DNA of 64,000 nucleotides from Desulfonatronum lacustre DSM 10312 (GTDB lineage: Bacteria > Desulfobacterota > Desulfovibrionia > Desulfovibrionales > Desulfonatronaceae). The stretch covers positions 2,885,313 through 2,949,312 of the forward strand of contig NZ_KI912608.1 in assembly GCF_000519265.1 (NCBI RefSeq), read 5' to 3'. A program made the position numbers and the translations under genes. This document shows, piece by piece, positions 3 to 50,948 of this stretch. The notes under the pieces are model-generated. The model was not told the DNA's origin. It ran no database searches and saw nothing but the letters and a program-made list of their open reading frames with translations. Within the stretch, counting starts at the first letter, position 1, and every line of letters begins with the position of its first letter.

Positions 3-1214
3 GCGGACTGTCCGCTTTGGGACGGACTGACGATCACGGAAGGCCTCAAGGTCTGGATGTCCCACGGAGACAAGGTCCTGACACCGCCGCCGGGATTCAC
101 CCCCCTGGCCCGGACCAGTCGGGTGGACGTGGCGGCCATGGCCGACGTTTCCCGCAAGATCTACGCCCTGCAGTTCCATCCGGAAGTCGTTCACACCGAG
201 GACGGCGACACGATCCTGCGCAATTTCCTGTTCCGGGTGGCCGGCCTGAACCCGACCTGGAACATGGCCTCCTTTCTGGAAGAAAACCTGGCCCGACTGC
301 GCGATCAAATCGGTGACCAGGAACAGGTAATTTGCGCGCTGAGCGGCGGCGTGGATTCAACCGTGGTGGCCGTGATGCTGCACAAGGCCATCGGACGCCG
401 ACTGCACTGCGTCCTGGTGGACAACGGCCTGCTGCGCCAGGGCGAGGGCGAGGAAATCGTGGCGTATCTGCGCCAACATTTCGATCTGAACCTGCACTAC
501 GCCCAGTCCCAGGATATGTTCCTTTCCCGGCTCAAGGACGTGGAAGACCCGGAGCAGAAACGCAAGATCATCGGCCACACCTTCATCGAAGTTTTTGAAC
601 AGGAAGCCAAATCCCTCACCGGCATCAAGTACCTGGCCCAAGGTACCCTGTACCCGGACGTCATTGAAAGCATCTCCTTCAAGGGGCCTTCCGCGGTGAT
701 CAAAAGTCACCACAATGTCGGTGGGCTGCCGGAGATAATGAACCTGTCCCTGATCGAACCTTTGCGGGAGTTGTTCAAGGACGAGGTGCGCAAGGTTGCC
801 GTGGAACTCGGCCTGCCGGATTTTATTGTTTGGCGGCACCCGTTCCCGGGCCCGGGGCTGGCCATCCGCATCCTGGGAGAAGTCACCCCGGAACGGCTGC
901 ACATCCTGCGGCAGGCCGACAAAATCGTGCACACGGAACTCATGGCCGCGGGTTGGTACTACAAGGTCTGGCAAGGCTTCGCCGTGCTTCTGCCCCTGAA
1001 GACCGTCGGCGTGATGGGTGACGAGCGGACCTACGAGCACGTCATCGCCCTGCGCATCGTGGACAGCATCGACGCCATGACCGCGGACTGGTCCCGAGTG
1101 CCCTCGGAAATCCTGGGCCAGATATCCAACCGGATCATCAATGAAGTCAAAGGAGTGAACAGGGTTGTCCTGGACATCTCCTCCAAACCGCCCAGCACGA
1201 TTGAGTGGGAGTAG
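3..1214 (+). CDS. guaA: GMP synthase (glutamine-hydrolysing), 5'-truncated
   Basis: Converts XMP to GMP with ATP and glutamine, the last step of de novo GMP synthesis in the cytoplasm. The frame is open from the left edge, so the first roughly 110 residues lie outside the window; 403 residues are visible, against about 515 for the family. The tail of the class I glutaminase domain is present, with the triad His and Glu in LQFHPEV. The ATP-pyrophosphatase domain follows, with the PP-loop SGGVDST (about nt 343-363), HNVGGLP and [12 protein letters not shown]. The C-terminal dimerisation domain ends in the usual [10 protein letters not shown]. The stop is 4 bp before tatB. In related genomes guaB usually lies upstream; that cannot be checked here. 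Identification is secure. Confidence 0.97.
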
Positions 1215-40522: not shown

Positions 40523-41770
40523 TTATTCAAAAAAGTTATGCTGTTGGAGGAAGGAGGAAAGAGAAACCCTGCGCCCCTTGAGGGCCAGCTTGCGGCGGAT
40601 ATTTTTGCGGTGGGTCTGGATGGTGTCAAAGGAGGTGTTCAACAGCTCGGCCACCTGCTGGGTGCCCGCGCCCATGCGGATCAGTCGGCAAACTTCGATT
40701 TCCCGGGGAGTGAGCTTGAGCAGGAGATTCGCCGATGCGTCGGTTTGGGCGTTCAGGCCGTCGGCGGAACCGGACTCGGAAAAGGCGGTGATGCGTTCCT
40801 CGATCATCACCTTGAGGGCGCTGCGCAGCTCCGGGGATTCCTCCCTGGCCATGCGCTCCACGGCCGGCAGTATCGCGGCCCGGACCTCCCGGAGCATGGC
40901 CTCCCGGACTTGTTCCTTCTCCTTTTCCGTGGAGCGGACCACGTTGCGCAGAGCCAGGCTCATGCCCTCCACTTCGGCCCGCTTGCGGCGAAGGCCCTTT
41001 TCCAGCAGGGCCTGGGCGGTCAGGTCGCGCAATACCATGTGATAGAGAGTGAAGCCCTGCAAATCGATCCGCCAGAGAGCCACCTCCACCGGAAGGGTGT
41101 CGCCATCCGGGCGCAGACACGTCCTACGAGACGTCCATCGTCCCCCGTCCTTGATGCGGGCCAACTTTTCAGCGATCACTTCCCGGTCCTCGACCTGGAA
41201 CAGCGTCGTCACCGAACGCCCGACAAGCCCGTCGCCCCGCGGGTCCAGCAATTTCGCGGCCCGGGGATTGGCGGCGTGGACGACCCGGTCCTGAGCCAAA
41301 AGCAGCATGGCGTCCTGAACCCCGTCGAACATGGCCCCGAACAGATGGATCGAGTTCTCCAAAGCCTGAATGTTCTCCCCGATCCGTTCTTTGTATATTT
41401 CCCGTAACTGGACGATGGGTCGATTGTCCGTGGCGATGATCACGTAGGCGGGGCGAGTGGACGCGGAAGCAGGGCGAGGGGGCGGGCCGGACTCCGCGGA
41501 GGGCCCGGCATGGATGTCGGGTCGAGGCTGTGATTCGAGGGGTGACGGACAACCGGGCAAAGCAATAATCCGCAACGCAAACGTCCCCTTCCCGCCCGGC
41601 GCATGAACCTCGTGCACCCGTCCGGGCGGGAATCGCTCCAAGGCCTGCTCCAGACTCCGAACCGGTAGCTTGAGAATATCCCAGAACGTTCCGCCGGCAC
41701 TTTCACGCGACGAGTCCTCCACTCCGCCCTGACCAACACTCAAAACTCCGCCAGCGGCGTCCGCGAACAA
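40523..41770 (-). CDS. PAS-sensor LuxR-family transcriptional regulator
   Basis: Regulator with PAS-like sensing modules and a C-terminal LuxR helix-turn-helix (LTPREIEVCRLIRMGAGTQQ, then VAELLNTSFDTIQTHRKNIR). A central PAS domain is seen around MFDGVQDAMLLLAQDRVVHA and GRSVTTLFQVEDREVIAEKL, followed by a coiled linker (GLRRKRAEVEGMSLALRNVV). The TTG at 41770 is the only standard start, but the open frame continues upstream to 41853 and encodes more of the N-terminal PAS fold (LSAVVRAFNDRVLFADA). A good ribosome site, GAAGGAG, precedes an ATC codon at 41845. The true start may therefore be ATC at 41845, or the 5' end may carry an indel. Signal unknown. Confidence 0.8.
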   Translation of the reverse strand: MFADAAGGVLSVGQGGVEDSSRESAGGTFWDILKLPVRSLEQALERFPPGRVHEVHAPGGKGTFALRIIALPGCPSPLESQPRPDIHAGPSAESGPPPRPASASTRPAYVIIATDNRPIVQLREIYKERIGENIQALENSIHLFGAMFDGVQDAMLLLAQDRVVHAANPRAAKLLDPRGDGLVGRSVTTLFQVEDREVIAEKLARIKDGGRWTSRRTCLRPDGDTLPVEVALWRIDLQGFTLYHMVLRDLTAQALLEKGLRRKRAEVEGMSLALRNVVRSTEKEKEQVREAMLREVRAAILPAVERMAREESPELRSALKVMIEERITAFSESGSADGLNAQTDASANLLLKLTPREIEVCRLIRMGAGTQQVAELLNTSFDTIQTHRKNIRRKLALKGRRVSLSSFLQQHNFFE

Positions 41771-45399: not shown

Positions 45400-45963
45400 T
45401 CAAATCGAGGCTTGCCCTGCCGGTACCCATCGGTAAAGAGTCGGCACGGAGACATCAAGAGTTTGGGCAACATCCCTGGCGGGCATACCGGAGGACAGTA
45501 GTTTCTTCGCGGACTCAACCTTGGTCAGCGTCATCTTTGGCTTGCGGCCACCATATCGGCCAAGTTTACGTGCGGCTTCCAGACCGGCCTTGGTCCGCTC
45601 AACGGTCAATTCCCGCTCCATCTCAGCCAGACTGGCCACCATGACGTGGAAGAAGAACCGACCAGCAGGTGTGCCGGTGTCGATGGCGTCAGTAATGCTT
45701 TTGAACTCAATTCCGCGTTCCCGCAACGATCCAACCAGGTCAACCAGGTGCTTTACGCCGCGGCCCAGGCGATCCAGTTTCCAGATCACGAGCGTATCGC
45801 CCTGACGGAGCATGTCGAGGGCCTTGGCAAGCCCTGGCCGATCCACCTGCGTTCCGCTGACCTTGTCCTCAAAAATTTTCTCGCAACCTACGCTGACAAG
45901 GGCTTCCTGTTGCAGGTTCAGGTTTTGATCCGTGGTCGAAACACGTGCGTAGCCGATCAGCAT
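45400..45963 (-). CDS. Serine recombinase (resolvase/invertase)
   Basis: 187-residue small serine recombinase. The catalytic domain has IGYARVSTTDQNLNLQQEAL with the nucleophilic Ser, then VIWKLDRLGRGVKHLVDLVG and FFFHVMVASLAEMERELTVE, then the E-helix RTKAGLEAARKLGRYGGRKP, and a Hin-like helix-turn-helix (SSGMPARDVAQTLDVSVPTL). It resembles Tn3-type resolvases and Pin-like invertases. A res-like array of repeats lies directly upstream. No transposase is nearby, so it is probably a remnant of a transposon or plasmid-type system. Confidence 0.93.
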   Translation of the reverse strand: MLIGYARVSTTDQNLNLQQEALVSVGCEKIFEDKVSGTQVDRPGLAKALDMLRQGDTLVIWKLDRLGRGVKHLVDLVGSLRERGIEFKSITDAIDTGTPAGRFFFHVMVASLAEMERELTVERTKAGLEAARKLGRYGGRKPKMTLTKVESAKKLLSSGMPARDVAQTLDVSVPTLYRWVPAGQASI

Positions 45964-48080: not shown

Positions 48081-48397
48081 GGCCTTCCCTTCTTTTGAAA
48101 TCGGCAAGATAGTCGATTGCCCGCTGAATATCGGCTTCCTGTGTCCGTTTATCGCCACCGCATAAAAGCAACACAATCAGCTTTCCCACCCTGCTGAAAT
48201 AGACGCGATACCCGGGGCCGTAGTCTATCCGCAGTTCCGAGACACCACCCCGGAGTGTTTTGCAATCGCCGAAATTACCAGCTTTCAAGCGGTTGATCGA
48301 CAATCTTGGCTCGTGCCCGCACATCCCGGAGGTCGGTCAGCCAATCCGCAATGACCTCCCGACCGTTATTAGCACGGTACCGACGAATGATGTTCAC
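48067..48397 (-). pseudogene. RelE/HigB-like toxin, apparently frameshifted
   Basis: The open frame from ATG 48324 (85 codons) ends with the family body INRLKAGNFGDCKTLRGGVS, ELRIDYGPGYRVYFSR and LIVLLLCGGDKRTQEADIQR. Its first ten codons (MCGHEPRLSI) are not family-like, whereas another frame upstream from GTG 48397 gives NIIRRYRANNGREVIADWLT then DLRDVRARAKI, the expected N-terminus. An indel near 48300 therefore separates the two. The intact part alone probably lacks the first helices. The adjacent antitoxin gene is intact. Confidence 0.7.
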
Positions 48398-48467
48398 GAA
48401 TTTTTGTAACTTTCAAATCACAGATGGTCAACAGATCTATCTCGCCATTTCGGCAAGTTGTCACCTT

Positions 48468-50948
48468 TCATCCACGCAGAAAAAAGTCCCGGTTCGTCCG
48501 TGCCGTCAGCCCGCGCACCGGCACCACGGGGTGGCCGTCACGTTCCTCGACTCCTTCGGGCCAGTCAAAATCCGGATCAATATCGCGCATGGCTTTTTTG
48601 GTCACGCAGAGCAGGCGCATCAGGACGTGGTCGTCGTGGGCGGCGACGATGCGGGCGTTGAGGTTGAAGTCCGCGTCGCCGAGGATGGTACGGACCACGT
48701 AGACCGGGACCTCCCGGCCGCTTTCGTGGCGGCGCAGGTGGGTGGCCAGGTCGATCACCGTGGTGGCTTCCACGGGGGTGTCCCGGTTCCATTCCTCCTG
48801 CACCGGCAGGCCGGCGACGTAGAGGTTCTGGAGCTCAATGCCGATCTGGCGGCAGTTGTAGCAGATCCGCTTCATTTCCTCCGGGGAGTCGTTGATCCCG
48901 GAGAGCAGGGCGATGTTGTTGTACACGGTCACGCCGTGGGCCAGGAGGCGGCGGATGATTTCGCCGTGGACCAGGCGAAACTCGCTGGAATGGACGAACT
49001 GGGTTTCCAGTTCCAGGCGGGTCGGGCGGGCGGGGTCGAGGTGGTTCAGGGCGATCAGTTCCTCGATCACGTCGTCGGTGTAGGCCTCGGGCTCGTAGGC
49101 GAACATCAGGCTGCGCACCCGCAGGGCGGTGACCTGGGGCAGGGAGCGCAGGGCCTGGGCATAGGCCTGGACCTCGGGCAGGTGGTTGAGGATTTTGTCT
49201 TCCGCGGCCAGGACCACGTCCGAAATCTCCGGATTGGCCTGGATGTACTCCAGAATGGCGGGCATCTCCCGGTTCGCGGCCACGTCCACCTCCACCTGGG
49301 TGCGGTGAACGCGCTGCAGGGCCTCGATGCCCGTGGGAACGATGCTTTGACGGATGCGTTGGTCTTGGCAGATGAGCTGCTGGACCCGGCCCAGTTCCTG
49401 GGGATCAAAGTCCCTGGCCGGCGGCGCGTCCTGGGAAAGGGAGCCGAAAAACAGGGACTCGTCGCCGATCCGGGCCATGAACCGGGAGTCCAGGGTCCCT
49501 TCGTGGTTCACGCGGCTTTTCTCCAAGGAAAATTGCGGGGCGAACGACTTGAAGTAGCCTTCGGTGTAGGGGGTGCGGATCCAGATCATATCCGGTTCCT
49601 CCCCGCTTTGCTCCACGGCCCAGCCGCTGGTGTTCCAGTCGATCTTCCCGATCTTGGTGGCCGTGCACAGAATGGGCATGGCCCGGTCCGGCAGGTGGCC
49701 GCGCAGATGGGCCAGGGCCGTATGACCGGCGGAAATGGGCGTCCAGTAGATATTGTTGCCCTGGATGGGGCTGCACGGGATGTAGATGTAGTGCAACTCG
49801 GAGCCCACGGCCCGCAGCTGGGCGTAGAGCTCGGCCAGCTCCGCGCCGGTGTCGTTGCAGTCCTTCAGGAACGGGGTCTGGGTGTAGACGCCGACCCCGC
49901 CCCGGACCAGCCGGGAGATGATCTCCAGACTGTAATGGGAGATTTCGTCCGGATGGATGAAGTGGGTGGCGATCTCGATCTTCTTGTTGGTCTTTTGCAG
50001 CTCCCGGTTCCGGTCGATCAGGTAGTTCAGCCAGAATTCGTTCTCCGCGAAGAACAGGGACGGGTAATAGGAGATGCACCGGGAGGCGATGCGGATGGTC
50101 TGGACGTGGGGAATCCCGGCCAGACCGGCCACTGCCGTGGTCAAGGTGGCCTTGTTCATCAGCGGCTCCCCCCCGGTGAGCACGATCTCCTTGATCTGGG
50201 GCGAGGCGGCGATGTGATCCACCGCCTTTTGGACGTCCTCCACCGTGGGCGCGGGGAGGTTGCGGCAGTCCTTGTGTTTGCGGAAGCAGAACCGGCAATA
50301 CACCGGGCAGCTCATGTGCAGGACGAAAATCGGGCGGTTCTGGTACATCTGTTCCAAAAGCCCCTGGTGAAACTGGCCGATCCAGGTGTTTTTCAGGCCG
50401 GTCTGATCCAGCTCCTGGACAAAGGGCATGAACTGATAGGCCACGTGCCGGGACAGGCGGGACTGGCGCAGGACGTGTCGGGACAGCCGCACCGGGTAGG
50501 TGTCGATGACCTGTTGCAGGTCTTCGCGCTGGTCCTCCGGAACCGTGATGTTGGTCAACTCCGCGTACTGTTCCACCGAGCGCACCGCCACGAACCCGTC
50601 GCCGGGAAGCATCTGCTCCAGGAAGACCAGCAGCAACCGCTTGGGCAGAACAATCCCGGAGACGCGCACCTCCGGACCTTCGTGGTCGTCCATTTCGTGA
50701 TCCGACTGGTGGTTCGTTTTGGCCAGTTGCCGCAAGACCTCCTGGAAAAACGCCGCCTCGTCCATTCCACAGGCTCGAAGCAGGTTCGCGATCCGGTCGC
50801 CATGGCCCAAAAGCGTTCCAAAGTCCGGCCCCAGATAGAACCGCGTGCCCCAGCGCTCCAGAAAATCCACCACAGCCGCCCGCAGCGCGTCGTGGGATAT
50901 GTTTGCTTCGTTTCCTGAATGACTGAATCGTACGGAATAGGTCTTCAT
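48468..50948 (-). CDS. Double-domain KamA-family radical SAM protein
   Basis: 826-residue cytoplasmic protein. The N-terminal ~500 residues are a lysine-2,3-aminomutase-like radical SAM domain with the [4Fe-4S] motif CPVYCRFC (CxxxCxxC), then IKEIVLTGGEPLMNKATLTT and FIHPDEISHYSLEIISRLVR. The PGGGGK lysine motif that binds PLP in true aminomutases is absent, with ILCTATKIGKIDWNTSGW at the comparable place. The C-terminal ~300 residues repeat the KamA barrel (ISDVVLAAEDKILNHLPEVQ, QFVHSSEFRLVHGEIIRRLL) without any cysteine triad. So one active and one pseudo-domain are fused. The reaction is unknown. TTGGAG precedes the ATG by 10 bases. Confidence 0.88.
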   Translation of the reverse strand: MKTYSVRFSHSGNEANISHDALRAAVVDFLERWGTRFYLGPDFGTLLGHGDRIANLLRACGMDEAAFFQEVLRQLAKTNHQSDHEMDDHEGPEVRVSGIVLPKRLLLVFLEQMLPGDGFVAVRSVEQYAELTNITVPEDQREDLQQVIDTYPVRLSRHVLRQSRLSRHVAYQFMPFVQELDQTGLKNTWIGQFHQGLLEQMYQNRPIFVLHMSCPVYCRFCFRKHKDCRNLPAPTVEDVQKAVDHIAASPQIKEIVLTGGEPLMNKATLTTAVAGLAGIPHVQTIRIASRCISYYPSLFFAENEFWLNYLIDRNRELQKTNKKIEIATHFIHPDEISHYSLEIISRLVRGGVGVYTQTPFLKDCNDTGAELAELYAQLRAVGSELHYIYIPCSPIQGNNIYWTPISAGHTALAHLRGHLPDRAMPILCTATKIGKIDWNTSGWAVEQSGEEPDMIWIRTPYTEGYFKSFAPQFSLEKSRVNHEGTLDSRFMARIGDESLFFGSLSQDAPPARDFDPQELGRVQQLICQDQRIRQSIVPTGIEALQRVHRTQVEVDVAANREMPAILEYIQANPEISDVVLAAEDKILNHLPEVQAYAQALRSLPQVTALRVRSLMFAYEPEAYTDDVIEELIALNHLDPARPTRLELETQFVHSSEFRLVHGEIIRRLLAHGVTVYNNIALLSGINDSPEEMKRICYNCRQIGIELQNLYVAGLPVQEEWNRDTPVEATTVIDLATHLRRHESGREVPVYVVRTILGDADFNLNARIVAAHDDHVLMRLLCVTKKAMRDIDPDFDWPEGVEERDGHPVVPVRGLTARTNRDFFLRG

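What the first reader, a model, noticed from the sequence alone, without database searches (positions are those of the whole stretch)
48468..50948. Radical SAM protein with an active and a degenerate KamA domain
The 826-residue protein fuses a KamA-type radical SAM domain, with CxxxCxxC but without the PLP motif, to a second KamA-like barrel with no cluster ligands. It is not a normal lysine aminomutase, and the second domain may be a substrate-binding or regulatory pseudo-enzyme.
Basis: partly seen in the sequence, partly recalled or inferred. Interest (0 to 1): 0.65.

Follow-up and report, generated by a model that had tools for sequence, protein, structure and literature searches.

The report
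Radical enzyme fused to inactive twin
A bacterial gene encodes a radical-SAM enzyme of the lysine-aminomutase type joined to an inactive copy of the same fold; dozens of mostly salt-water anaerobes keep it, and several carry it beside genes known from making a salt-protecting amino acid.

Summary
The ORF is real (window 48468-50948, minus strand, 826 aa). It is one member of a rare family found in 38 loci from several phyla. The N half is a KamA-like radical-SAM barrel. The C half alone also folds as a lysine-aminomutase barrel (best PDB match 2a5h, Z 20.1). Its whole cluster loop is missing, not only the cysteines, and the PLP lysine is replaced by Asp/Glu.

Only the glycine-rich stretch of the PLP motif is lost; the lysine itself (K435) is present in 34 of 34 homologues, so a PLP-type 2,3-aminomutase remains likely. 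The two Asp that grip lysine's side chain are Ser/Thr here.

The two halves are sisters in a tree. Both are under purifying selection, and the C half keeps an invariant charged set of barrel-strand residues.

Gene context is the main new result. The gene sits in or beside the ablB/polyamine-type-transporter/proline-racemase-like/amidohydrolase set in relatives. In the window's own genome that set carries canonical ablA; in at least two relatives the fused protein is the only KamA-type protein.

Substrate and C-half role are untested.

The parts
48468..50948 (-). Whole gene: double-KamA protein (dKamA), 826 aa, ATG start, stop included
   Evidence: homologues of the same architecture
50637..50948 (-). 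N-terminal extension, residues 1-104, no counterpart in LAM and no Pfam or PDB sequence match
   Evidence: (LAM match begins at residue 105)
49434..50636 (-). N half, residues 105-505: KamA-type radical SAM barrel
   Evidence: PF04055 38.6 bits over cut-off 29.5; full-length model vs 2a5h Z 25.6
50286..50309 (-). C214-x3-C218-x2-C221, [4Fe-4S]/SAM ligands
   Evidence: sequence; invariant in A3
49614..49652 (-). IGK435[ILMV][DE]WxxSGWAV motif (residues 433-445); K435 = position of the PLP lysine (LAM K337)
48471..49406 (-). C half, residues 515-826: degenerate KamA barrel without cluster loop
   Evidence: DSSP (beta1 ends 555, helix starts 559; N half 211 to 236)
48675..48680 (-). G757-D758: D/E in place of the PLP lysine in the C half
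49005..49019 (-). R644-x-E646-x-E648, invariant charged residues on one face of a barrel strand of the C half

Best explanation
A radical-SAM, PLP-dependent amino-acid 2,3-aminomutase-type enzyme built as a covalent pseudo-dimer. The N half binds the [4Fe-4S] cluster and SAM, makes the 5'-deoxyadenosyl radical and, through K435, holds PLP to move an amino group between C2 and C3 of an amino acid that is not held by the usual lysine-binding aspartates. The C half, a sister copy that lost the cluster loop and the PLP lysine, stands where the second subunit of a LAM-type dimer would stand and keeps a polar pocket that probably binds a ligand. The product feeds the same pathway as AblA: beta-amino acid, acetylation by AblB, linked to a polyamine-type importer, a proline-racemase-family enzyme and an amidohydrolase. 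Shown: architecture, predicted fold, residues kept and lost, sister relation of the halves, selection on both halves, linkage to the abl set in relatives. Inferred: PLP use, aminomutase reaction, pseudo-dimer packing, ligand binding in the C half, substrate.
For: Radical SAM cysteines and GG[ED] motif conserved; K435 in 34/34 and aligned to the PLP lysine of canonical AblA; nearest solved fold for both halves is LAM 2a5h. The single superposition of the full model on one LAM chain spans 105..814 to 3..368, i.e. it runs from the N half into the C half; [quoted passage not shown] N and C halves each one clade and sisters, 100/99; dN/dS 0.04-0.16 for N, 0.07-0.32 for C. Context: ablB immediately upstream of dKamA in L066 and L067, truncated in L081; in the same gene set about 10 kb away in L060 and L061. 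Genomes G297 and G300 hold ablB and no other KamA-type protein. The window's own genome carries ablA-ablB-potBCDA-proline racemase-amidohydrolase, the genes after ablA being 42-78% identical to that set. A same-genus genome has dKamA-LuxR-ablA-ablB-potBCD on one strand.
Against: The glycine-rich stretch before the PLP lysine and the LAM Arg at the position of M201 are altered, so PLP binding is not certain. Lysine-binding Asp pair absent (S393, T429). In the window itself dKamA is not next to ablB, and some genomes with dKamA have no ablB (G302, G303, G304, G309, G311). In G020 dKamA and canonical AblA coexist in one gene row, so it is not simply AblA's replacement.
Confidence: 0.5

Rival explanations
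1. A KamA-derived radical SAM enzyme that has left PLP chemistry: K435 is kept for another role, and the enzyme does epimerisation, dehydrogenation or modification of a peptide or amino acid.
For: Altered glycine-rich stretch before the PLP lysine, the LAM Arg replaced by invariant M201, novel invariant motif IGK-x-[DE]-W-x2-SGWAV; score under even the broad KamA cut-off, 169 vs 199.2 bits; an M23-type peptidase gene adjacent in 9 genomes.
Against: Other KamA paralogues of the genome show the same short form of the motif (ATNIGK, SHATGK), so the short form is not by itself a sign of PLP loss; linkage to ablB, whose known partner makes a beta-amino acid.
Confidence: 0.25
2. The C half is pure scaffold: it only replaces the partner subunit of a LAM-type dimer and binds nothing.
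For: Superposition on one LAM chain runs from the N half into the C half; C half less tightly constrained than the N half.
Against: Invariant R546, H548, D577, R610, R644, E646, E648, Y676, E705 and near-invariant R612, N678 lie on the polar faces of successive barrel strands, as in a binding pocket. A scaffold should conserve its outside contact surface instead; burial was not measured.
Confidence: 0.3
3. dKamA is a stand-in lysine 2,3-aminomutase that makes beta-lysine for N-acetyl-beta-lysine, with the lysine side chain held by new residues.
For: Only KamA-type protein beside ablB in G297 and G300, in a gene set that carries canonical ablA in the window's genome; AblBs with either partner are about equally similar, and their separation is weak, 67/80.
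Against: Both lysine-side-chain aspartates replaced by Ser/Thr in 33/34; it coexists with canonical AblA in the window's genome and in G020.
Confidence: 0.25

Closest known systems
Lysine 2,3-aminomutase (AblA/KamA, TIGR03820; PDB 2a5h)
   Same: Barrel fold (Z 25.6), CxxxCxxC, SAM motifs, PLP-lysine position, gene company of ablB in relatives
   Different: Fused to a second barrel; S393/T429 for D293/D330; glycine-rich motif shortened; extra 104-residue N-terminal part; 25% identity to the genome's own AblA
Arginine 2,3-aminomutase (TIGR04468) and glutamate 2,3-aminomutase (TIGR04368)
   Same: Best NCBIfam hit is TIGR04468 (179 bits); the genome's paralogue nearest to that model (L003) has the same short xIGK motif
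   Different: Far under cut-offs of 600 and 650 bits; the models describe single-barrel proteins of 351 and 404 positions
FbiC (CofG/CofH fusion)
   Same: Two radical SAM barrels in one chain (recalled from general knowledge; not tested here)
   Different: There both domains carry clusters and catalyse (recalled); here one is cluster-less and of KamA type
abl osmolyte operon (N-epsilon-acetyl-beta-lysine)
   Same: ablB beside the gene in several relatives; same transporter/racemase/amidohydrolase set around canonical ablA in the window's genome
   Different: Fused protein in addition to, or in place of, AblA

Membership tests
Radical SAM superfamily (PF04055), N half | Curated score cut-off and CxxxCxxC | tested here: met
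   38.6 bits vs 29.5; C214/218/221 invariant
Radical SAM superfamily, C half | Cluster-binding CxxxCxxC | tested here: not met
   No conserved CxxxCxxC; the beta1-alpha1 loop that would carry it is about 3 residues long. Fold shared with LAM, so it is a derived, cluster-less barrel
KamA family TIGR00238 | Curated cut-off 199.2 bits for the whole protein | tested here: not met
   169 bits; clear relative (E 1.3e-49) but under the family's own line
Lysine 2,3-aminomutase AblA (TIGR03820) | Equivalog cut-off 525.4 bits | tested here: not met
   168.7 bits
Lysine 2,3-aminomutase | Lysine-side-chain aspartates D293 and D330 | tested here: not met
   S393 and T429 by alignment with own AblA; Ser 33/34, Thr 33/34. 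Residue roles recalled from the 2a5h literature, paper not held
Lysine 2,3-aminomutase | PLP-binding lysine (K337) | tested here: met
   K435 aligned with it, 34/34
Lysine 2,3-aminomutase | Aminomutase activity, PLP and cluster content | not testable with these tools
   Needs purified protein
Arginine 2,3-aminomutase (TIGR04468) | Equivalog cut-off 600 bits | tested here: not met
   179.1 bits

The most novel reading that the evidence does not exclude
A radical SAM aminomutase whose second barrel has become a substrate- or effector-binding pseudo-enzyme that controls the active barrel inside an obligate pseudo-dimer, acting on a substrate other than lysine (for example an amino acid with an uncharged side chain, such as N-acetyl-lysine acetylated before migration), hence a new route to beta-amino-acid osmolytes or to their use.
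Probability: 0.2. Interest if true: 0.75.

Novelty: new variant of a known kind. Interest (0 to 1): 0.52.

Why it matters
The KamA family is central to beta-amino-acid biochemistry, and its well-known members are single-barrel proteins that pair up. A natural fusion of one live and one dead barrel gives a built-in heterodimer in which the contribution of the second subunit can be tested one side at a time. It also marks an unassigned step or alternative enzyme in a gene set linked to salt-protecting beta-amino acids in sulfate reducers and other anaerobes, with a small list of candidate substrates.

Tried and rejected
Misannotated or spurious ORF: rejected, homologues keep both halves across phyla. 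Fusion as an assembly artefact: rejected, same architecture in many independent assemblies. Antisense ORF 48306-50918 (+) as the real gene: the long open antisense frame is not kept at that length in most homologous loci, and the minus-strand frame has the homologues. Riboswitch upstream that would name the substrate: none in the window or in 21 related loci at Rfam gathering thresholds. AblB tree to tell whether dKamA-linked AblBs form their own group: weak, 67/80. M23-like gene as universal partner: rejected, no close stand-alone homologue in the window's genome. Literature search for a degenerate or inactive radical SAM domain fused to a KamA domain found nothing relevant in the held library, which does not include most subscription journals, so 'not described before' is not established. 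LAM structure paper not held.

Full report
OBSERVATION. The ORF lies exactly where the finding puts it, on the minus strand, ATG to stop, 826 residues. Pfam sees a radical SAM domain at 214-267 (38.6 bits, cut-off 29.5). NCBIfam sees KamA-type models in two stretches. The best is arginine 2,3-aminomutase at 179 bits, but all are under their cut-offs. Each half searched alone still hits KamA-type models: N half 1.4e-35, C half 2.3e-19.

THE SECOND HALF IS A KAMA BARREL. Profile-profile comparison of the two halves gives probability 99.9 and E 1.8e-33. An AlphaFold2 model of the full protein has pLDDT 90.3 and pTM 0.93. The C half folded alone has pLDDT 92.2 and pTM 0.89, and its best solved match is lysine 2,3-aminomutase 2a5h: Foldseek E 7e-14, VIA Z 20.1, rmsd 2.4 over 230 residues, well above the next rows at about 12. 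The finding's own refutation test therefore does not refute it. In the model the segment that carries the cluster cysteines in the N half (between strand end 211 and helix start 236) is cut to 555-559 in the C half: the loop is gone, not merely mutated. No conserved CxxxCxxC exists in any C half.

The PLP motif is not gone from the N half. The canonical form is DAPGGGGK; the genome's own AblA reads DAPGGGGKIP. The N half reads TATKIGKID, and another paralogue of the same genome, ATNIGKIP, bridges the two. K435 is invariant in 34 of 34. In the C half the same position is D or E. The LAM residues that hold the lysine side chain, D293 and D330 (roles recalled from the literature, structure paper not held), align with S393 and T429, conserved as Ser and Thr in 33/34 each. 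So the likely chemistry is an aminomutase, but not with lysine held in the known way.

THE FAMILY. A scan of about 85,000 species genomes with the C-half profile returned 38 loci, most with both halves in one frame: Desulfovibrionales, Desulfobacterales and other delta-lineages, a Spirochaetia bin, Aminicenantes, KSB1, Acidobacteria, Eremiobacterota and Muiribacteriota. Full-length proteins reach 42-74% identity to the window's. In a sample of 297 genomes of the window's order, about 11 carry it; in 148 of the phylum only the window's own had a match at E 1e-30. It is rare and patchy.

ORIGIN AND SELECTION. In a tree of 53 rows the N halves are one clade, the C halves one clade, and the two are joined against 25 other KamA-type proteins with support 100/99, with the stated caveat that long branches meet there. 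Sub-groupings inside the N and C clades match in part (window/L041/L053; L059/L072), as expected of an old fusion inherited as a unit. dN/dS over nine pairs is 0.04-0.16 for N and 0.07-0.32 for C: both are constrained, the C half less tightly. On the polar face of successive C-half strands, R546, H548, D577, R610, R644, E646, E648, Y676 and E705 are invariant and R612 and N678 nearly so. That is more like a kept binding pocket than decay, but burial was inferred from strand alternation, not measured.

HOW THE HALVES PROBABLY SIT. [quoted passage not shown] The full model aligns to a single LAM chain over 344 residues with model range 105..814 against chain 3..368, so the last part of one LAM subunit is matched by part of the C half. 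The C half alone matches LAM only to residue 341. This fits a covalent pseudo-dimer.

GENE CONTEXT. In the window the neighbours are an MFS transporter upstream (PF07690) and an addiction-module antidote gene downstream, with little meaning across the family. Elsewhere a clear set appears: IclR regulator, PotB, PotC, PotD, PotA, a proline-racemase-family protein with both catalytic cysteines (CGH and DRSPCGTG), an amidohydrolase (PF07969), a class I aminotransferase and AblB (334 bits, cut-off 205). ablB lies immediately upstream of dKamA in L066 and L067 and, truncated, in L081. In L060 and L061 it ends the same row about 10 kb away. Genomes G297 and G300 have ablB but no KamA-type protein other than dKamA. 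Four other genomes of the 16 tested have ablB without a canonical AblA over cut-off, while four with canonical AblA keep ablB beside or close to it. The window's own genome carries ablA-ablB-potB-potC-potD-potA-proline racemase-amidohydrolase in one row, the genes after ablA being 42-78% identical to the Desulfobacterales set. A same-genus genome (G020) has dKamA, a PAS-LuxR regulator, ablA, ablB, potB, potC and potD on one strand. dKamA thus belongs to the abl theme; whether as AblA's alternative, its partner or an enzyme for another substrate stays open. A second link is an M23-type protein adjacent in nine genomes from Desulfovibrionales, Desulfobacterales-type lineages, Spirochaetia and Aminicenantes, related to the M23 segment of a kinase-M23-aminotransferase fusion, and next to ablB in G312.

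VERDICT. A new variant of a known kind: a KamA-derived radical SAM protein, probably PLP-dependent, with a sister pseudo-barrel. It is not filed as lysine 2,3-aminomutase (equivalog cut-off and aspartate pair not met), nor as a TIGR00238 member (under its cut-off). It works, most likely, like one.

Noticed in passing
L048:8374-9918 (genome G010, same genus): Variant with an in-frame loss of residues 173-483, i.e. the whole catalytic barrel, leaving the N-terminal part joined to an intact C half. Metagenome assembly, so it may be an artefact.
   Followed up: partly
window 48306-50918 (+): 870-aa open antisense frame over the whole gene, longer than the gene itself; no sign that it is a gene.
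   Followed up: partly
window 40523-41770 (-): PAS-LuxR regulator whose 55%-identical relative sits between dKamA and ablA in G020; perhaps a remnant of an older shared gene row.
   Followed up: partly
L091, L092 (genomes G013, G038): 1034-1058 aa ORFs that look like kinase-M23-class III aminotransferase fusions, whose M23 segment resembles the stand-alone gene next to dKamA.
   Followed up: partly
L115:1-5991 (= L079): dKamA followed on one strand by an ornithine-aminotransferase-like gene, a proline-racemase-family gene and an MttB-like methyltransferase: a different company that hints at amino-acid breakdown.
   Followed up: partly
window genome, 5 further KamA-type genes (L002-L006): Six KamA-type proteins in one 3.76-Mb genome, including canonical ablA and several unassigned types.
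   Followed up: partly
window 45400-45963 (-): Resolvase-family recombinase with HTH (PF00239) near lower-GC stretches at 44-48 kb; possible mobile segment next to the gene.
   Followed up: no
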